This document shows, piece after piece, positions 502 through 7,597 of a DNA stretch of 7,597 nucleotides (within the stretch, counting starts at the first letter, position 1; each line of letters begins with the position of its first letter). Made by a program: the position numbers and the translations under genes. The DNA is taken from assembly GCA_017464045.1 (NCBI GenBank), contig JAFUEG010000261.1, positions 1-7,597 of the forward strand. Direction: 5' to 3'. This DNA is from Lachnospiraceae bacterium. GTDB lineage: Bacteria; Bacillota_A; Clostridia; Lachnospirales; Lachnospiraceae. The notes under the pieces were generated by a model. It saw only the letters and a program-made list of their open reading frames with translations, ran no database searches and had not been told where the DNA came from.

Positions 502-1908
502 TCAAAACCTGAAATATATAAACGGATTGTACGAACCTGACGCAAGACTCATCATACATAGCAGCAGCAAAAGCAGCAAAATCACACCGGATATAATATG
601 CGCAGCATTTGTAAGCGCTGTGCTGCCTGTCTTTTTAATCTTATTCTTAAGAAGAATCACCCATGGAAAAGAACATATCACTCCCGCCAAAAGCATAAGT
701 ATATTATATGGCGTCATAAGTGAAACAACCAGACTGTCCGCATACACATCTTGCCTAAAGGTAAACATATGCACGATTATCGTGATACCCTGACCTATAC
801 TATCGGCTCTAAACACCACAAATGCAACTATAACTACCAGCATGGTAAATATGTGCTTTATAAATTTTGATTTTATATTATTGATACTAAGATGTTTTGT
901 ATCCTCAAGAGTTATAAAGAGTCCGTGGAACAGTCCCCAAAAAAGAAATGTCCAGTTTGCTCCGTGCCATATACCGGTAAGTATAAACACGATATATTTG
1001 TTGATAAAGGTTCTTTTTTTACCTCTGCGGTTTCCCCCAAGAGGTATGTAAACGTACTCCTTAAACCATGTGGAAAGTGATATATGCCATCTTCTCCAGA
1101 ATTCCTTTATCGTAGAAGAAGCATACGGATAGTTGAAGTTTTCTTTGAAATGAAAACCAAACATTCTCCCGAGTCCTATAGCCATATCGCTGTATCCGCT
1201 AAAGTCGTAGTATATCTGAAGAGTATATCCGATTGCCATAACCCATGCAGAAAAAAAGGTCCATGGAAAGCTCATAGCCATAAGACTATCAACTATATAA
1301 GCTATAGTATTGGATATAAGCACTTTTTTTGATAAGCCTTTTATAAATCTTCTTATACCGTATTCAATATCGTCTACACTCTGTTTCCTTTCGATTATCT
1401 CATTTTCCATATCATGATACTTTATAATCGGACCTGCGATAAGCTGCGGAAAAAATGATATATAAAGAAGTACATTTAAAAAATTTTTCTGATAAGGTGT
1501 TTCCTTTCTGTATACATCTATCACATAGGACATAGCTTGAAATGTAAAAAAAGATATGCCAATCGGCATTGTGATATGTGCTGCCTTTATATCCGAACCT
1601 GATATTTTATTAATCTCATTTATGAAAAAAGCTGAATACTTAAACAAAATAAGACATGACAGGTTGAGCACTATGCTAATAACAAGCCATATCTTTTTTG
1701 ATTTTCCTGATACAAGTATCCCACATATATAATTAAAAAAAGCAGAACCTATCATAAGAAATACATATTTCGGTTCACCTACGGAATAAAATATCAGACT
1801 GAATATAATTAATAATATATTTTTAATTTTTATTTGCGGTATAAGTGTATATAACACAAATACCGCAAATAAGAAAACACTTATAAATGCTATACCGGAA
1901 AAAACCAT
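502..1908 (-). CDS. MBOAT-family O-acyltransferase (AlgI/DltB-like), polysaccharide acylation
   Basis: This 468-residue polytopic membrane protein should transfer an acyl group, usually acetyl, across the membrane to an extracellular glycan or other surface acceptor. It opens with MVFSGIAFISVFL, a typical AlgI start, and has about ten or more hydrophobic segments. MPIGISFFTFQAMSYVIDVYR (112-132) is the family hallmark. The WRRWHISLSTW block holds H275, and TGIWHGANWTFLFWG holds H315, the conserved membrane-embedded catalytic His. The protein ends SYNPFIYFRF, as AlgI-like proteins do, so it looks complete at normal family length. AGAGGA at 1919-1914 lies 5 bases before the ATG. It is 16 bp behind the transglutaminase gene and 88 bp ahead of an AlgJ/AlgX-like partner. 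MBOAT plus AlgJ/SGNH pairs acetylate alginate in Pseudomonas and cellulose in Wss-type operons. The acceptor here is unknown. No glycan synthase is in the window. Confidence 0.95.
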   Translation of the reverse strand: MVFSGIAFISVFLFAVFVLYTLIPQIKIKNILLIIFSLIFYSVGEPKYVFLMIGSAFFNYICGILVSGKSKKIWLVISIVLNLSCLILFKYSAFFINEINKISGSDIKAAHITMPIGISFFTFQAMSYVIDVYRKETPYQKNFLNVLLYISFFPQLIAGPIIKYHDMENEIIERKQSVDDIEYGIRRFIKGLSKKVLISNTIAYIVDSLMAMSFPWTFFSAWVMAIGYTLQIYYDFSGYSDMAIGLGRMFGFHFKENFNYPYASSTIKEFWRRWHISLSTWFKEYVYIPLGGNRRGKKRTFINKYIVFILTGIWHGANWTFLFWGLFHGLFITLEDTKHLSINNIKSKFIKHIFTMLVVIVAFVVFRADSIGQGITIIVHMFTFRQDVYADSLVVSLMTPYNILMLLAGVICSFPWVILLKNKIKKTGSTALTNAAHIISGVILLLLLLLCMMSLASGSYNPFIYFRF

Positions 1909-1924: not shown

Positions 1925-3262
1925 TTAGTACCAATACTTGTACGGGTGTCCGTTAGTTACTCCATACAAATTAACATTATTATAACGCTCAAGTTCAGTG
2001 TCATAGATAAGTCCTCCTATCTCAACCCATCCATGAGGATCTTTTCTTGTTCCAACAGATCCGCAATACCATTGGGCATCGTATCCGATTTTGAGTGCCA
2101 AATAGTAAAAGACTGCACTAAATCCATAGCAATTTCCATATCCTGTGGACATCGTCTTATATGCATAATACTCTGCCGATGTAAATTCAGCAGGATGATT
2201 TGCTGATAAACTCCTGTATGTAAAATTATTTACAACATACAAATATGCACTTCTAAGCTTTTGTTCATCTGACATGGAAGAGTTTGTTGATACTCTTAAA
2301 ATGTCATCCAAATACGGTTCTATAACAGAATATCCATACGTTGTTTCCCAACTTTTCTTAACAACCGGTATATTTTCAAATCCATAACAAACTTCGTCTA
2401 TAATTTCTCCTGTTGCATCATGGAGTCTGAATAATGTCAGATAATATCCGTATTCGGGCTGCCAAACTGTCCACATTGTCTTACCGTCTGAAGGATCAGT
2501 TCCAGGAAGAAGTCTTAGTTGTCCGGTTGTGTATATCCAAGGTGTAGGTGAACCCGCAGCAAGCAGCGAAAGATCCATTACTATCATTTCATATTGATAT
2601 TCCTGATTTGGATTATCATAGGTTTCAAAACCAATCAGATATCCTCCACCCTCTCCAAGATAAGGAGTCTGACACTTATCCTTTATATGTTTGTGATACT
2701 CAGCATATGTCTCTTTTTGAATGTATTCCTCTTCTCCCGCAATTCTGACCATAACCATTATGGCGTAATCGCCGGATTTTTCAGGTGTCCAGTCAAGCCA
2801 TTCCATATTTAAAGCCCATGGACTTATTTCAGACCATGCATCATCATCCTTTAAGCAGGCGATCCATCTGTATTCCAAATCATATCCTAAAGGATTATCA
2901 ACCACAGCTCCCGCAACTATATGATCCTTATCATTTTCTGTGATATATATACCACTTAAAGAAACATCTGCACCAGAAAGGAAAACTTTATCCTCCTCTG
3001 TAAACTCATCAAAACTGCCATTGCTGTCGCTATAAGACGAATCACTGTCTTCCCCTGTATCTTCCATAAACGGATATGCATTTGTGTCAAGACCTTCTTC
3101 CGATATTTCAAAATATTTCGATTCAAAATCAGAATTTTTATATCCTTCGTCTTTATCATCAGCTGCATATACCTTATTATCAAAGCATGAGAAAGAAGCT
3201 ATTATCGTACAAGCTGTACATATTGCTGCCACGCCTTTTTTCATCTTCAAGTATGTCTTCAT
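1925..3262 (-). CDS. Secreted transglutaminase-like (papain-fold) protein carrying the shared module internally
   Basis: This 445-residue protein starts at an ATG preceded by GGGAGG (3273-3268) at 5 bases. Residues 1-34 are a signal peptide with VYA before the mature acidic N-terminus. Residues 66-92 are a Ser/Asp/Glu-rich linker. The Ig-like domain is at about 98-190 and the unknown shared domain at 192-297 (C197/C292). The C-terminal part, about 305-445, is a transglutaminase-like fold with C378 in YGNCYGFSAVF, H410 in DPHGWVEI and D421 in LIYDTELE, a complete Cys-His-Asp triad. Bacterial proteins of this family are mostly proteases, peptide-modifying enzymes or cross-linkers, and the triad does not tell which. 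Here the shared module lies before the catalytic domain, not at the C-terminus. The MBOAT gene follows after 16 bp, a strong sign of co-transcription. I am confident of the fold; the substrate is unknown. Confidence 0.9.
   Translation of the reverse strand: MKTYLKMKKGVAAICTACTIIASFSCFDNKVYAADDKDEGYKNSDFESKYFEISEEGLDTNAYPFMEDTGEDSDSSYSDSNGSFDEFTEEDKVFLSGADVSLSGIYITENDKDHIVAGAVVDNPLGYDLEYRWIACLKDDDAWSEISPWALNMEWLDWTPEKSGDYAIMVMVRIAGEEEYIQKETYAEYHKHIKDKCQTPYLGEGGGYLIGFETYDNPNQEYQYEMIVMDLSLLAAGSPTPWIYTTGQLRLLPGTDPSDGKTMWTVWQPEYGYYLTLFRLHDATGEIIDEVCYGFENIPVVKKSWETTYGYSVIEPYLDDILRVSTNSSMSDEQKLRSAYLYVVNNFTYRSLSANHPAEFTSAEYYAYKTMSTGYGNCYGFSAVFYYLALKIGYDAQWYCGSVGTRKDPHGWVEIGGLIYDTELERYNNVNLYGVTNGHPYKYWY
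2372..2971 (-). repeat. Shared Ig-like + unknown module, copy 3 (transglutaminase-like protein)
   Basis: This codes for residues 98-297. The Ig-like part keeps the EWLDWTP and SGDY signatures. The second part, from HIKDKCQTPYLGEGGG to VCYGFEN, is identical to the GH9 copy at about 79 of 106 positions without a gap. The most divergent part is the segment after SPTPW (residues 242-258). Unlike the other copies, about 148 more residues follow. Confidence 0.85.
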
Positions 3263-3290
3263 TTTTTCCTCCCGGTACTACACGTTGTCA

Positions 3291-3884
3291 TCAGTATGCA
3301 TTGGCAAATCCGTAGCATACCTCATCTAAAATATTTCCATCTTTATCATATAATCTAAACAGTGTCAGATAATATCCGTATTGCGGCTGCCATATAGTCC
3401 ATAACGTCTTTCCGTCAGAAGGTGTAGCACCTGCTGCAAGCGTTATAGGGTAAGTTCTGTGTACCCATGGTGTAGGCGAACCTGCTGCATATAACGAAAG
3501 ATCCATTACAAACATCTCATATTGGTAATTCTGATATGGATTATCATATGATTCAAAACCAATAAGATATCCTCCGCCTTCGCCCCAATATGGCATCTGA
3601 CATTTATCCTTTATATAAGGATGATAGCTTACCTTGGTTGATGATTTTACTACATTATCTGTATTGGATGATTCCCTGGCAAAAGCAACAACCTCGTATT
3701 CGCCGTACTCACCCGGAACCCACGTAAGCCACTCATAATCTGTTGTCCAGTTTTTGATAAGCGTCCATGTCTGTCCTTCATCCTTACTTGAATACCATGC
3801 ATATTGTATGGAGTCATTTCCCGAATAATTAACATCAAAGCTCATTGTATAACCGTTTTTACCGCCGCTGCTAATTGTAATACC
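3291..3884 (-). repeat. Shared Ig-like + unknown C-terminal module, copy 2 (CAP protein)
   Basis: The Ig-like part has WYSSKDEGQTW, an EWLTWVP segment and a YGEYEV strand. It matches the GH9 Ig-like part only loosely. From YIKDKCQMPYWGEGGG onward the match to GH9 rises abruptly to about 90% identity up to the shared terminal FANAY. At DNA level the first 120 aligned bases (from the stop codon) differ at 21 positions, while only 4 of the 39 encoded residues differ, so the copies are not a fresh duplication. Confidence 0.85.
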
Positions 3885-4523
3885 CTCTGCTTCCAAAGGC
3901 TGCGAGCTATCTGCATTATACTTTACCGGTTTATTTGTATATCCAAAATCCTGAACCCAATAATAACCGTATTTAGAACCCGGAACATATATGCACGCGA
4001 TACCTATACAATTAAAACTACTACTAAGTATATTAGCTCTATGGCCGGATGAATTCATCCAGTCATCCATAACCTCTTCCGCAGTATACTGACCTGCTGC
4101 AATATTTTCACCTACGGCTCTCCAAAATACCTCATCAGTGAATGCAGTCCAGCAATCTGTTCCATCAGGTCTTGTATGAGCAAATTTTGTAACTATTTCA
4201 TTAGCTCTGACGTTTGCAGTATTTACAAGATTTTTATCCATAACAAGAGCAGAAAGTCCGGCCGCTGCTCTCTCCTGATTTACCAGGTCAAGAACATCCC
4301 ACATAGCCTGGCTTGTATCTGCCGCATAGACACTAAGATTATTTTCATCAATATCATCTGTCAAAAAGTCTTCCGACTGCTCTTCCTTGATAATTCCTTC
4401 TTCAGTAAGCCCATCTATATTATCTGCAGCACCTGTCGGTACCGGATTAAAAAGCACTCCTGTAAAGATTGCAGCTGCCGCTATGATAGAAAGCTTACTT
4501 CTTATCTTATCCTTCAAATGCAT
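3291..4523 (-). CDS. Secreted CAP-domain (SCP/PR1-like) protein with shared Ig-like and C-terminal module
   Basis: With the ATG at 4523 the protein has 410 residues. Residues 1 to about 32 are a signal peptide, followed by an acidic stretch at about 35-60. The CAP domain covers about 72-196: LVNQERAAAGL near the start, then FAHTRPDGT (H116), GENIAAG (E139) and SSGHRANIL (H161), the residues that form the conserved CAP cleft, then YWVQDFG. Family knowledge: bacterial CAP proteins are extracellular and of mixed role (cell-wall association, possible lipid or glycan binding), and most have no proven enzymatic activity. The Ig-like domain is at about 214-300, and the unknown domain shared with GH9 at 303-410, ending in CYGFANAY with C308/C403. 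The transglutaminase gene starts 28 bp downstream, so both are likely on one transcript. No wall-sorting motif or transmembrane anchor is visible. The domain call is secure; the biological role is open. Confidence 0.92.
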   Translation of the reverse strand: MHLKDKIRSKLSIIAAAAIFTGVLFNPVPTGAADNIDGLTEEGIIKEEQSEDFLTDDIDENNLSVYAADTSQAMWDVLDLVNQERAAAGLSALVMDKNLVNTANVRANEIVTKFAHTRPDGTDCWTAFTDEVFWRAVGENIAAGQYTAEEVMDDWMNSSGHRANILSSSFNCIGIACIYVPGSKYGYYWVQDFGYTNKPVKYNADSSQPLEAEGITISSGGKNGYTMSFDVNYSGNDSIQYAWYSSKDEGQTWTLIKNWTTDYEWLTWVPGEYGEYEVVAFARESSNTDNVVKSSTKVSYHPYIKDKCQMPYWGEGGGYLIGFESYDNPYQNYQYEMFVMDLSLYAAGSPTPWVHRTYPITLAAGATPSDGKTLWTIWQPQYGYYLTLFRLYDKDGNILDEVCYGFANAY

Positions 4524-4531
4524 ATAAATCA

Positions 4532-4537
4532 CTCCTT
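4532..4537 (-). promoter_or_regulatory. Ribosome binding site of the CAP gene, deciding the ATG start at 4523
   Basis: AAGGAG on the minus strand lies 8 bases upstream of an ATG at 4523-4521. A GTG at 4532-4530 extends the frame by three codons, but it overlaps the Shine-Dalgarno sequence itself and cannot use it. The ATG at 4523 is therefore preferred. Confidence 0.8.
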
Positions 4538-4548
4538 ATAAAAATCGA

Positions 4549-4591
4549 AAAAAGCAGGCATAAAACATCTTTATTTTTATATCCGCTTTTT
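4549..4591 (-). terminator. Terminator-like hairpin between GH9 and CAP genes, possibly an attenuator
   Basis: On the minus strand AAAAAGCGG pairs with CC-T-GCTTTTT with one bulged base, and an inner ATAAAA pairs with TTTTAT around a 9-base loop, giving about 15 base pairs. The descending arm runs into TTTTTTCGATTTTT. This fits an intrinsic terminator for the GH9 transcript. The hairpin ends only about 11 bases before the CAP ribosome binding site, so CAP expression requires read-through, or the hairpin works as an attenuator downstream of the possible promoter at 4629-4649. The plus strand also ends in a short T run. The stem is AT-rich, so its strength is uncertain. Confidence 0.5.
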
Positions 4592-4628
4592 CTACCTTAC
4601 ACTACCGGTAACATAAAGTACTATCTAT

Positions 4629-4649
4629 ATTATAATTAAAACCTGTCAA
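4629..4649 (-). promoter_or_regulatory. Possible promoter for the CAP/transglutaminase/MBOAT genes
   Basis: The minus strand carries a consensus -35 TTGACA (4649-4644) and, further downstream, a consensus TATAAT (4634-4629). These two are only 9 bases apart, so they cannot pair with each other. TTGACA could use the weaker TAGATA 16 bases downstream, or TATAAT could use an upstream TTTATT at 17 bases. The region is AT-rich, so chance matches are likely. Its place just after the GH9 stop, upstream of the CAP gene, makes a promoter reasonable. Confidence 0.35.
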
Positions 4650-4681
4650 ATAATAAAGTGAAAAAATATGGGAATTATAAT

Positions 4682-5284
4682 TTAGTACGCATTTGCAAAT
4701 CCATAACAAACCTCATCAATGGTATTGCCATCTTTATCATATAATCTGAAAGGTGTCAGGTAATATCCATACTCAGGCTGCCATATAGTCCATAATGTTT
4801 TTCCATCCTCCGGGGTAGCTCCCGCAACCAACTTTATAGGATAAGTCCTATGTACCCAAGGTGTAGGTGAACCTGCTGCAAGAAGACTTAAGTCCATAAC
4901 AAACATTTCATACTGATACTCCTGATTTGGATTTTCATATGACTCAAAGCCGATAAGATATCCGCCGCCTTCGCCCCAGTATGGCATCTGACATTTATCT
5001 TTTATATACGAGTGATGAGAAACATTTCCAACAGCCGTGACAATTGTTGAGTCATCCCCTGACAGCCTTGCCTTTGCCAGTACAACATAATCACCACACG
5101 ATGATGGTGTCCATGTCATCCACTGATTTCCCCTTGTCCAGTCCTGAATCATTATCCAGTTTTCTCCATCTTTACATGCATACCATGAAAAATCCACATC
5201 AGATAAATCCGAATAGTTGGTGCTTGCACCCATAACAATTGATGTTCTATCCTGTGATACAACATATATTCCTGATATGGAAAG
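4682..5284 (-). repeat. Shared Ig-like + unknown C-terminal module, copy 1 (GH9)
   Basis: This codes for residues 479-678 of the GH9 protein. The first part is Ig-like, with an aromatic core Trp-Tyr-x-Cys, then W-x-x-W-x-P and G-x-Y. The second part starts at YIKDKCQ (571-577), has conserved GEGGGYLIGFE, SPTPW and WQPxYGYYLT motifs, and ends in CYGFANAY. By hand count the second part is identical at 97 of 108 positions to the CAP-protein copy. C576 and C671 are 95 positions apart and may form a disulfide. Confidence 0.85.
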
Positions 5285-6718
5285 CCCCTCCGGTTCATCT
5301 GTATAGTAACTTGGATCTACAGTTTGGGTTCCTTCATTTAAATGCAGAGAATAAAGCGAAGCAGCCGCTGCAACAAGTGTTGCATTATAATCTATAGCTA
5401 CCTCATTGCACTGATAATCGTCTGTTGTATCTGCATAATATCCACCATTTTTAGGCCCGCCTACAAGTGCACCCATCAAGACATGAGCATGCTGTGTAGT
5501 TCCCTTTGGTCCACCTGTATATCCGGTAGCCGCCCTATGATGCGGATATTTAGAACTGTTTGAGGAAAATCCCACTACGTAACACTGATTAGTCGGATTA
5601 TTACCAAGAATATAACTCATCTGGCCTTCAGCCCATGAACGGTATGTTGCACTGCCTGTTGCCTTATCATATAAAAGTCCCGTGTACTGCATTGAGGTAT
5701 TGTATCTTGCTGAACCCCAGTCATTTACACAGACATAACCATCCGAGTTTTTATTATTCATATATGAGCTCATAATATTTGATAATGATGATGCTTTACC
5801 ACTGTAATAGTATTGTGCAGGAGCGACATTATCCCATCCTAAAGGCCACCATACATTTGTTGCCTTGCCCTGATTACAATAATTATTATACTCATTTAAG
5901 TAGTAGGAGTCTCCGGTAACATTATAAAGCATGATTGCTGCAAGACAGTAATCGTCCTCCCATCCGGAAGATGTATAAAAGTTAGCAGCTGTAGTATTTA
6001 CAGCCTTGTTATGATTTTTAGCATATTCAAAAAGTTTCTTTGACATATCAAGATAATTTCCGCCGCCAAAGTTCTTATACTGCATGGCAAGCGCCGCAGC
6101 AGAAAGACTTACTATGTCTGTTGAAGGCGCAGAATCACTTGTAAAAAATATAGGACGGTTATTTCTGTCCGAATTCTGATTTTCAGGCGGTCCCCAATAT
6201 CCGTGGTCATATCCGCCGCCACCCTGTCCGACCTGACAGCAATATGCTTCTACATTTCCACTTGCATCCAAAACCGCACATTTTACAAGATAATCTGCAA
6301 AGTAAGTTGTTATAGTCTGAAGATGGCCCGTCTGTCCTGCCGCATCATAAGCAGCCTTATCAGTATCATAACTCATTCCAAGCATAAATGCTGCATAAGC
6401 TTCCGGAAGTCCAAATTTAACGTGGTCTCCGGCATCATGAAAGCCGCCCGTCAAATCTACGTTTACAGTCACTCCATCCTTTCTTGTATATGCTGCAACA
6501 TCATTTGTATGACAGTTTCCTCTCCAGTCAAGCAGGCTTTTTTCTCCTACTTCACCTCCACACATATTGGCATCATAAAAATAAAGCGAATACTGCAGTA
6601 ACTTTGCATAGTCGTCGTTTCCGGCTGCTTTTGATTTTGCTTCAACCATACCAAACATTCCTGCCACCAATGCCATAGTAAGCATAACAGAAATACATTT
6701 TTTTAGTTTCTTTACCAC
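4682..6718 (-). CDS. Secreted glycoside hydrolase family 9 cellulase/beta-glucanase with C-terminal Ig-like and unknown domains
   Basis: This 678-residue protein should hydrolyse beta-1,4-glucan (cellulose or mixed-linkage beta-glucan) outside the cell by the inverting GH9 mechanism. Residues 1-27 form a signal peptide (Lys-rich start, hydrophobic core, VEA cleavage motif). The GH9 catalytic domain spans about 34-460. DAGDHVKFGLP at 95-105 carries the catalytic-base Asp pair D95/D98, the substrate-binding PHHR is at 392-395, and NEVAIDYNA at 438-446 holds the proton donor E439. The other GH9 blocks (QGGGGYDHGYWGPPE, the LVGGP region) are also present, so the enzyme looks intact. An Ig-like domain follows at about 478-570, then a ~108-residue domain at 571-678 that recurs in the two next genes. 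There is no CBM3c, dockerin, SLH or LPXTG signal. The 14 cysteines are many for a secreted Gram-positive protein. GTG start with a strong ribosome binding site. Specificity (cellulose versus lichenan) cannot be read from sequence. Confidence 0.95.
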   Translation of the reverse strand: MVKKLKKCISVMLTMALVAGMFGMVEAKSKAAGNDDYAKLLQYSLYFYDANMCGGEVGEKSLLDWRGNCHTNDVAAYTRKDGVTVNVDLTGGFHDAGDHVKFGLPEAYAAFMLGMSYDTDKAAYDAAGQTGHLQTITTYFADYLVKCAVLDASGNVEAYCCQVGQGGGGYDHGYWGPPENQNSDRNNRPIFFTSDSAPSTDIVSLSAAALAMQYKNFGGGNYLDMSKKLFEYAKNHNKAVNTTAANFYTSSGWEDDYCLAAIMLYNVTGDSYYLNEYNNYCNQGKATNVWWPLGWDNVAPAQYYYSGKASSLSNIMSSYMNNKNSDGYVCVNDWGSARYNTSMQYTGLLYDKATGSATYRSWAEGQMSYILGNNPTNQCYVVGFSSNSSKYPHHRAATGYTGGPKGTTQHAHVLMGALVGGPKNGGYYADTTDDYQCNEVAIDYNATLVAAAASLYSLHLNEGTQTVDPSYYTDEPEGLSISGIYVVSQDRTSIVMGASTNYSDLSDVDFSWYACKDGENWIMIQDWTRGNQWMTWTPSSCGDYVVLAKARLSGDDSTIVTAVGNVSHHSYIKDKCQMPYWGEGGGYLIGFESYENPNQEYQYEMFVMDLSLLAAGSPTPWVHRTYPIKLVAGATPEDGKTLWTIWQPEYGYYLTPFRLYDKDGNTIDEVCYGFANAY

Positions 6719-6744: not shown

Positions 6745-7597
6745 TCAATCTATGACTCCTGCATTTTTCAAGTCATCTATAAGCATTCCCGTCCTAACTT
6801 TTTCGCCCTCACTGTTACAGTGATAAAGCGCATCATACATAAGTTCCTCCGGATAAAGATAATCCGATGGATCACTTATATAAGGTATACCGATTTTTTC
6901 TTCCTCCTGTTTAGCGAAGAGTCTGAAATCCTCATCACTGCATATAACTGCATTTTCTATAAGCGGCGGTGCAACAAAGTAAACCTTTGCGCCCCTATCC
7001 TCCGCATATTTTTTATACTCCTTCAGATACTCTATACTTCTGTCTGATATCACAGCATTATGCAAATCGATAAGTTCAAATTTATCCTTCATGGACTCAT
7101 AATCCATCTGCTCATCACGCTGCATGATAAGCTGTGTGGTTTCCTCATCAAATGCCTCTCTTGAATATATGCCCGTCGGCGGCTGATAATAATTTTTCAT
7201 CGTCGCATAAGTAAATAAATACCCCAGAAATGAAGGCCATTTTCTCGCAGGAATATATTTGTATAATTCTATATCATCATCTATTCCGGTCATGATAAGT
7301 TCGGTTCCAACCATATCAAATCCGTCATCCGGATACCAATTGTACTCGTAAGCAAGCAAAACTATGTCACCTTCATTTATATTGGCCTTTGATATTTCAG
7401 AATAAAAGATTGGTCCAAAGCCCGCATGTACACCCAGATTAACCACTTTATATCCTGATGCCTCCTCAAGCATCTGCTGGTCAAGGCCAAAGGTTCCACT
7501 GCTTCCCGCAACAAAGATAATCTTAGGCTCATCTGTATTCATTAAAAGATCATACTTATCCTGTATAAGGCTCTGGTAGCTTTGGTGAAAAACACCT
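6745..7597 (-). CDS. SGNH-hydrolase-like cell-surface protein, N-terminus off the right edge
   Basis: The frame stays open from the right edge to a TGA at 6745-6747. About 283 residues are visible, of which 18 lie upstream of the first in-window Met (codon at 7542-7540), so that Met is not the true start. Numbering from that Met, a block-I-like Gly-Ser-Ser sits at residues 13-15 (S15 would be the nucleophile), a block-II Asn-Leu-Gly at 35-37, and a C-terminal Asp-x-x-x-His at 237-241 followed by Asn and Glu-Gly. These match the SGNH/GDSL fold as seen in proteins that accompany MBOAT acyltransferases and take part in acyl transfer to surface glycans. A membrane anchor or signal peptide would be expected in the missing N-terminal 30-40 residues. 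The GH9 gene follows after 26 bp, so the two are probably co-transcribed. The substrate is unknown; an esterase role is possible instead of a transferase role. The family assignment is good, the exact function uncertain. Confidence 0.8.
   Translation of the reverse strand, partial: GVFHQSYQSLIQDKYDLLMNTDEPKIIFVAGSSGTFGLDQQMLEEASGYKVVNLGVHAGFGPIFYSEISKANINEGDIVLLAYEYNWYPDDGFDMVGTELIMTGIDDDIELYKYIPARKWPSFLGYLFTYATMKNYYQPPTGIYSREAFDEETTQLIMQRDEQMDYESMKDKFELIDLHNAVISDRSIEYLKEYKKYAEDRGAKVYFVAPPLIENAVICSDEDFRLFAKQEEEKIGIPYISDPSDYLYPEELMYDALYHCNSEGEKVRTGMLIDDLKNAGVID

What the first reader, a model, noticed from the sequence alone, without database searches (positions are those of the whole stretch)
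2372..5284. One two-part module, including an unassigned ~108-residue domain, shared by three unrelated secreted proteins in adjacent genes
Seen: GH9, CAP and transglutaminase-like proteins each carry an Ig-like domain followed directly by a gap-free domain with motifs KDKCQ, GEGGGYLIGFE, NPxQxYQYEM, MDLSL-AAGSPTPW, WQPxYGYYLT and DEVCYGF. Hand counts give about 97/108 identity (GH9 vs CAP) and 79/106 (GH9 vs transglutaminase). Known: unrelated catalytic domains carrying one common non-catalytic domain usually share a location or scaffold, as with dockerins, SLH or type IX C-terminal domains. None of those is present here. Inference: the domain is an undescribed surface-retention or glycan-binding module, and its aromatic and glycine content suits carbohydrate binding.
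Basis: partly seen in the sequence, partly recalled or inferred. Interest (0 to 1): 0.8.

Follow-up and report, generated by a model that had tools for sequence, protein, structure and literature searches.

The report
Swappable C-terminal tail tracking surface sugar
Three unrelated secreted enzymes of a gut/rumen-type bacterium carry the same undescribed small domain, and across related bacteria that domain tends to come and go together with one sugar-polymer gene while other tails replace it on the same enzymes, which suggests it is a key that holds enzymes on the cell's own surface polysaccharide.

Summary
Confirmed: GH9, CAP and transglutaminase proteins share an FN3-like domain plus a ~108-residue domain (97/108 and 79/106 identities) without Pfam, NCBIfam or PDB sequence match. 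Domain 2 is a predicted FN3/Ig-like sandwich, single-copy in 170 of 171 proteins and C-terminal in 162. It is rare (2 of 397 family genomes). In one genus, RgpF (rhamnan synthesis) occurs in 10 of 12 domain-bearing and 0 of 25 other genomes; 23 of 78 domain matches lie within 10 kb of it (0.7 expected). Of the 25, 19 keep an orthologous Wzt locus without RgpF; the secreted GH9 orthologue has other tails in all 11 RgpF- genomes where it was read. Domain 2 is more alike among different enzymes of one genome than among orthologues (10 of 10); the Ig domain shows the reverse in 9 of 10. Best reading: a surface anchor recognising the RgpF-dependent polysaccharide, working like SLH or CWB2 but a different family. 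Binding is untested; G003, G427 and G430 have the domain without RgpF.

The parts
4685..5008 (-). domain 2 of the GH9 protein (residues 571-678), C-terminal end of the protein
   Evidence: AlphaFold2 model pLDDT 91.2, pTM 0.81
5009..5290 (-). domain 1 (FN3/Ig-like) of the GH9 protein, about residues 477-570
   Evidence: two-domain model pLDDT 92.5, pTM 0.81; FN3 matches over model residues 2-95
5366..6610 (-). GH9 catalytic domain (Pfam residues 37-451) of the 4682-6718 gene
   Evidence: PF00759 E 5e-101
3294..3617 (-). domain 2 of the CAP protein (residues 306-413), C-terminal end
3618..3908 (-). domain 1 (Ig-like) of the CAP protein, approximate limits
   Evidence: alignment
3945..4292 (-). 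CAP domain (residues 81-196) of the 3291-4532 gene
   Evidence: PF00188 E 8.5e-21
2369..2689 (-). domain 2 of the transglutaminase-like protein (residues 192-298), internal
2690..2980 (-). domain 1 (Ig-like) of the transglutaminase-like protein, approximate limits
   Evidence: alignment
1928..2368 (-). C-terminal transglutaminase-like part after the module
   Evidence: PF01841 E 1.5e-8, residues 326-415
502..1908 (-). MBOAT (DltB-like) O-acyltransferase gene next to the module genes
   Evidence: PF03062 E 2.7e-34; DltB model below its cut-off; same gene family in L001, L085, L091, which all hold module genes
6745..7596 (-). gene upstream of GH9, cut by the window end; SGNH/AlgJ-like by eye (recalled)
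   Evidence: no Pfam match over cut-off; same family in L001 and L091 beside MBOAT and module genes

Best explanation
Domain 2 is a mostly C-terminal, non-covalent surface-retention domain. Secreted enzymes leave the cell by their N-terminal signal peptide; domain 2, an FN3/Ig-like sandwich usually set apart from the enzyme by a variable Ig-like linker, then binds a rhamnan-type surface polysaccharide that is made with RgpF and exported by the Wzm/Wzt ABC transporter, possibly O-acylated by neighbouring acyltransferases. The enzymes thus stay on the producer's own surface. When a strain exchanges the polysaccharide's glycosyltransferase, the tails on its enzymes are exchanged too. Shown by calculation: the shared domain, its position, its predicted fold, linkage and co-occurrence with RgpF in one genus, the alternative tails on orthologous enzymes, genome-specific evolution of domain 2. 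Inferred: that the ligand is the polysaccharide, that binding is non-covalent, that O-acylation matters, that the window's own genome has RgpF (its genome is not held).
For: Single copy in 170 of 171 proteins and ending within 2 residues of the C-terminus in 162 of 171; 159 of 171 have a hydrophobic N-terminal stretch by a crude test. Partners include GH9, GH3, CAP, transglutaminase, LRR, SGNH, amidase, papain-like. RgpF in 10 of 12 module genomes and 0 of 25 others of one genus (Fisher p 1.9e-7, relatedness not corrected). On an rpoB tree of 27 of the 37 genomes module presence is scattered (8 changes) and RgpF goes the same way in 4-5 of 6 independent pairs, the other way in none. 23 of 78 module matches within 10 kb of RgpF, about 0.7 expected under uniform placement; in a second genus one module gene follows RgpF directly (G132, L108). 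RgpF-like and CAP-Ig-module parts are fused in P0136 and P0149. Secreted GH9 orthologues as far as read: module tail in 9 genomes, all RgpF+; other tails in 11 genomes, all RgpF-, among them ChW (PF07538) in four. Domain 2 resembles copies on other enzymes in the same genome more than copies on homologous heads elsewhere in 10 of 10 genomes (window counted as one; means 77.6 vs 68.6%); the Ig domain does so in 1 of 10. Fourfold sites are almost as diverged within genomes (44.8% identical) as between (40.0%), which speaks against recent gene conversion.
Against: No binding was measured and no ligand is known. G003 (6 module matches) has no RgpF match, and none of 18 reference polysaccharide-locus proteins except DUF5722 matched beside five of its modules. 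G427 and G430 have one module each and no RgpF, though G427's copy is a headless 193-aa frame and G430 is a 1.6 Mb assembly. In G400 (20 of 21), G408 (11 of 15) and G132 (29 of 30) module matches lie beyond 20 kb of RgpF or on other contigs. RgpF-like genes without the module are common in the family (48 of 397 against module 2 of 397). G001 has two modules and also four matches to the alternative repeat tail. G405 has a second secreted GH9 without the module. The sign test on independent pairs does not reach 0.05. Nine of the 37 genomes show no full-length Wzt orthologue, three of them module-bearing. Many of the genomes are fragmented assemblies.
Confidence: 0.66

Rival explanations
1. Domain 2 is a carbohydrate-binding module for dietary plant polysaccharides (cellulose, glucans) that targets enzymes to food.
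For: It sits on a GH9 and a GH3 and has many conserved aromatic residues.
Against: Many carriers are not plant-polysaccharide enzymes (CAP, transglutaminase, amidase, LRR). It is linked to and co-occurs with a surface-polysaccharide gene, and orthologous GH9s in four congeners carry ChW, a known cell-surface repeat.
Confidence: 0.1
2. Domain 2 docks to a protein scaffold on the surface (as dockerin to cohesin); the scaffold gene travels with the RgpF locus.
For: A single C-terminal copy on many enzymes is how dockerins behave (recalled); linkage to a locus would fit a linked receptor.
Against: Among gene families recurring in the 22 loci clustered the secreted ones without the module that I recognised are the amidase F0, DUF5722 F7 and a small F13, none in every locus; not every family was identified. 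No dockerin match.
Confidence: 0.12
3. Domain 2 is a C-terminal sorting signal processed by a dedicated enzyme that links the protein covalently to the polysaccharide, as PEP-CTERM/exosortase or type IX C-terminal domains do.
For: C-terminal position in 162 of 171 and association with a polysaccharide gene resemble PEP-CTERM/EpsH (abstract of PMC1569441).
Against: It is predicted to be a folded domain of about 100 residues and its model ends in a strand, not a helix; it is internal in 9 of 171 proteins. I recognised no transpeptidase among the recurring neighbours, but most neighbours were not run through Pfam.
Confidence: 0.08
4. The pattern is hitch-hiking: surface-protein genes and polysaccharide genes lie in one exchangeable island, without a physical interaction.
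For: Tail types differ between close relatives (G423, G401 and G416 differ by roughly 5-7% in rpoB but have module, ChW and repeat tails).
Against: Copies outside the island are numerous (G400 20 of 21, G405 3 of 7 beyond 20 kb), tails differ on retained enzymes, and domain 2, not the adjoining Ig domain, is homogeneous within genomes.
Confidence: 0.15

Closest known systems
CWB2 (PF04122) and anionic polymer PSII of Clostridioides difficile (PMC4973711, abstract and section list seen)
   Same: Secreted proteins kept on the wall by a domain that recognises a wall polymer made by a defined locus.
   Different: CWB2 needs three tandem repeats; here one copy of an FN3-like domain, no Pfam match to CWB2, and the linked locus has RgpF and Wzm/Wzt.
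SLH domain (PF00395) with CsaB-pyruvylated wall polysaccharide (passages of PMC5817068)
   Same: An enzyme that modifies the wall polysaccharide is essential for binding.
   Different: No SLH match; the linked gene belongs to the RgpF family, not a pyruvyl transferase.
ChW repeat (PF07538; ligand unknown according to passages of PMC5817068; surface display in L. lactis, passages of PMC6700490)
   Same: Found as the alternative tail on orthologous GH9 in four congeners.
   Different: About 50-residue repeats in several copies; no sequence match.
PEP-CTERM/EpsH (PMC1569441, abstract and section list seen)
   Same: C-terminal homology on diverse secreted proteins, several copies per genome if any, sporadic, tied to polysaccharide genes.
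   Different: Short motif with membrane helix and a presumed transpeptidase in bacteria with an outer membrane; here a folded domain in Lachnospiraceae.

Membership tests
CWB2 | PF04122 sequence match, three tandem repeats | tested here: not met
   No match in Pfam at E<=1 for the three proteins; single copy in 170 of 171
SLH | PF00395 sequence match | tested here: not met
   No match
Dockerin | dockerin Pfam match | tested here: not met
   No Pfam match; predicted mostly beta
Type IX or PEP-CTERM sorting domains | match to a curated model | tested here: not met
   No Pfam or NCBIfam match; that those libraries hold such models is recalled
ChW | PF07538 match | tested here: not met
   No match in the window proteins; it is found on GH9 orthologues of G401, G409, G412, G413
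FN3/Ig-like fold | beta-sandwich fold | tested here: met
Wall-polysaccharide-binding anchor (as a kind of function) | physical binding to a wall polymer | not testable with these tools
   needs a binding assay
Wall-polysaccharide-binding anchor (as a kind of function) | co-occurrence and linkage with the ligand's biosynthesis gene | tested here: met
   10 of 12 vs 0 of 25 genomes in one genus; 23 of 78 matches within 10 kb; exceptions G003, G427, G430

The most novel reading that the evidence does not exclude
The secretome carries a strain-specific key for the strain's own surface polysaccharide. Swapping the glycosyltransferase of a shared export locus (RgpF, tandem GT2, others) is accompanied by re-tailing of the set of surface enzymes (this domain, the Tyr-rich 90-residue repeat, ChW), so that costly secreted enzymes stick only to self and kin: a matched lock-and-key code for private enzyme retention inside one genus.
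Probability: 0.33. Interest if true: 0.86.

Novelty: new variant of a known kind. Interest (0 to 1): 0.74.

Why it matters
If true it would add an anchoring family to the short list of wall-polysaccharide-binding domains and name its candidate partner gene, which makes the ligand directly testable. The genus offers a natural experiment, since orthologous enzymes carry different tails in near relatives with different polysaccharide glycosyltransferases. It bears on how gut and rumen bacteria keep fibre-degrading enzymes private, and offers tails for displaying proteins on Lachnospiraceae.

Tried and rejected
Plant-glycan CBM, dockerin-like docking, covalent sorting signal and pure hitch-hiking are set out as rivals. 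Phage proteins as carriers of the domain were looked for: one scan of the viral collection found no relative. Whether the co-occurrence is only clade membership was tested on an rpoB tree: module presence is scattered, 8 changes against a shuffled mean of 7.7. Recent gene conversion as the cause of within-genome similarity was tested at fourfold sites and is not favoured, though a small excess remains. Foldseek and VIA-align gave only generic FN3/Ig matches. PHROGs was tried once and failed, PADLOC was not searched. Paper searches that might have shown an earlier description listed none that I could recognise as such from titles and abstracts; they cover open-licence papers only.
Full report
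Observation. The window holds, all on the minus strand, a gene cut by the window end (6745-7596), GH9 (4682-6718), CAP (3291-4532), a transglutaminase-like gene (1925-3262), an MBOAT gene (502-1908) and a 118-residue frame (57-413). Pfam names GH9, CAP, transglutaminase and MBOAT and nothing else above cut-off. The adjoining Ig-like part is far less alike: 33, 27 and 20% between the three proteins. No sequence match for the 202-residue module was found in PDB at E<=10, and none in Pfam or NCBIfam for the whole proteins.

Where it is found. A GTDB scan with the window's domain 2, which finds close relatives only, gave three loci, all in Lachnospiraceae assemblies. Of 397 genomes sampled from the family two have the domain (at most 12 candidates per genome were scored). 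In the genus of G002, which includes G001, 12 of 37 genomes have it, with 1 to 21 matches, partial ones included; G132, the only genome held of its genus, has 30, one of them partial.

Context. In seven genomes (G001, G002, G408, G417, G418, G423, G426) module genes flank a block Wzm, epimerase, Wzt, methyltransferase and kinase-like protein, RgpF; G405, G400 and, from another genus, G132 have similar blocks beside module genes, G400's less complete. In G002, G405, G417, G418, G423, G426 and G132 the gene next to RgpF carries the module. Pfam identifies Wzt_C, ABC2_membrane, RgpF (PF05045, E 2.9e-199), dTDP-sugar isomerase (RmlC) and an acyltransferase among these neighbours. RgpF is one of three glycosyltransferases needed for rhamnan synthesis in Streptococcus mutans (passages of PMC4931226). 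The window has the MBOAT and SGNH-like genes next to its module genes, and L001 has the same two families between two module genes and beside the Wzm-RgpF block. The window's genome is not held, so RgpF there is an inference.

Co-occurrence. RgpF is found in 10 of the 37 genomes, all ten among the 12 with the module; chance p 1.9e-7 if genomes were independent. They are not, so an rpoB tree was made: 28 of 37 genomes gave rpoB, 27 were used, 9 with the module and 7 with RgpF. Module presence needs 8 changes, at least 6 forced by supported branches, and is not clustered. Among 6 independent pairs differing in the module RgpF goes the same way in 4 or 5 and the opposite way in none; with so few pairs the sign test gives p 0.06-0.13. 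Exceptions are G427, G430 and, outside the genus, G003. G427's only copy is a 193-residue frame without a head; G430's module protein is cut by a contig end. G003 shows no RgpF match, and of 18 reference locus proteins only DUF5722 matches beside five of its six modules; this I cannot explain. RgpF without the module is common in the family (48 of 397 genomes have RgpF-like matches, partial ones included), so RgpF would be necessary rather than sufficient. Of 78 module matches in the ten genomes, partial ones included, 23 lie within 10 kb of RgpF and 32 within 20 kb, where 0.7 would be expected within 10 kb. P0136 and P0149 fuse an RgpF-like N-terminus (38% over 313, 31% over 447 residues) to a membrane segment, CAP, Ig-like and module.

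Tail replacement. The GH9 search gave 61 matches in 35 of the 37 genomes; 30 became loci. Of these, ten are a different paralogue (22-25% alike in the core) that ends with the catalytic domain, one (G425) could not be read, and 19 are orthologues of the window's secreted GH9 (66-86%); two G405 genes were added. As far as the fetched stretches reach, the secreted GH9 ends in the module in nine genomes, all RgpF+, and in something else in eleven, all RgpF-: a Tyr-rich 90-residue repeat in G402 and G416, ChW in G401, G409, G412 and G413, Big_2 with the end not reached in G403 and G406, fn3 in G419, no Pfam domain in G433, cut in G432. G405's second secreted GH9 lacks the module. The 90-residue repeat has no Pfam match. 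The eight genomes with at least 10 repeat matches have no module except G427's headless copy, and the eight genomes with at least five modules have at most one repeat match; G001 has two modules and four repeat matches. Among the stretches fetched by then, 24 of 53 module-protein entries have a head homologue among 24 repeat-tailed proteins; at least two of the 24 are counted twice because stretches overlap, and one protein (G426, 385 aa) bears both tails. The window's GH9 (70%) and CAP (67%) heads are among them; its transglutaminase is not, but G407 has a protein with repeats followed by a C-terminal transglutaminase (24.2 bits, cut-off 23), the order seen in the window. In G002 and its relative G402 the gene upstream of Wzm has the module in the first and repeats in the second, heads 44% alike over 305 residues.

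The locus without the module. A Wzt orthologue (at least 46% over most of its length, split hits counted) is found in 28 of 37 genomes, 19 of them among the 25 without the module. In those 19 loci Wzm was seen in 18 and RmlC in 13, some stretches being cut by contig ends, and RgpF in none. A tandem GT2 protein (52-80% alike) follows the methyltransferase in the repeat-rich genomes G402, G407, G416, G424 and in G427; in the repeat-rich G429 the stretch ends before any such gene is seen, and G410 and G411 have no Wzt orthologue. G403 has a related GT2 protein with a Big_2 tail, and more distant ones (27-43%) occur in G406, G409 and G412. So the match between glycosyltransferase type and tail type is clear for RgpF and suggestive for the repeat.

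Genome-specific evolution. If the ligand differs between strains, domain 2 should be alike within a genome whatever enzyme it sits on. It is: within-genome copies on other heads are 77.6% identical on average, copies on homologous heads in other genomes 68.6%, the direction being the same in all 10 (nine genomes and the window; 49 modules from the fetched stretches; comparisons among G002, G417 and G418 left out as too close). The Ig domain next to it shows the opposite (26.9 against 35.2%; within higher only in G423). Fourfold sites are 44.8% identical within (104 pairs) and 40.0% between genomes (987 pairs), so recent gene conversion is not the main cause, although the small excess leaves room for older exchange.

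Conclusion. The steps shown are architecture, fold class, linkage, co-occurrence, replacement and genome-specific evolution. That domain 2 binds the RgpF-dependent polysaccharide is the simplest account of all of them, and is inferred. It would work like SLH or CWB2 anchors but is a member of neither.

Noticed in passing
L116:11193-16354 (-), L120:3374-7779 (+), L179-L191: A second undescribed tail: tandem 90-residue Tyr-rich repeats (YNGVDYSAVYDY...HYI.YG..EGR) without Pfam match, on orthologous enzymes in congeners without the module; in some proteins other domains follow it.
   Followed up: yes
P0136, P0149: Single frames joining an RgpF-like glycosyltransferase, a membrane segment and a CAP-Ig-module protein; how the two halves are placed across the membrane is unclear.
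   Followed up: partly
L082 (G426, 385-aa protein at 7423+); G400:C55:3591-4160; G408:C152:18745-19311: Proteins in which one Tyr-rich repeat match directly precedes the module, possible intermediates of tail exchange.
   Followed up: partly
window:57-413 (-): 118-residue frame that looks like the N-terminus of an AlgX/DltD-like acyltransferase partner (by eye, recalled) and ends early near the window end; whether it is truncated or interrupted was not settled.
   Followed up: no
window domain 2 copies and L001: The window and G001 copies look like a subtype: two of the four common cysteines are missing and the loop before WTIWQP is longer.
   Followed up: no
L075:2386-4710, L001:1358-3646 and neighbours: DUF5722 (PF18989) proteins recur beside, or as carriers of, the module; their function is unknown.
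   Followed up: no
L083 (G405), 749-aa GH9: Second secreted GH9 of an RgpF+ genome with a different tail and no module.
   Followed up: no
L208-L212 (G003): Six module matches in a genome without RgpF match and without recognised polysaccharide neighbours; unexplained.
   Followed up: partly
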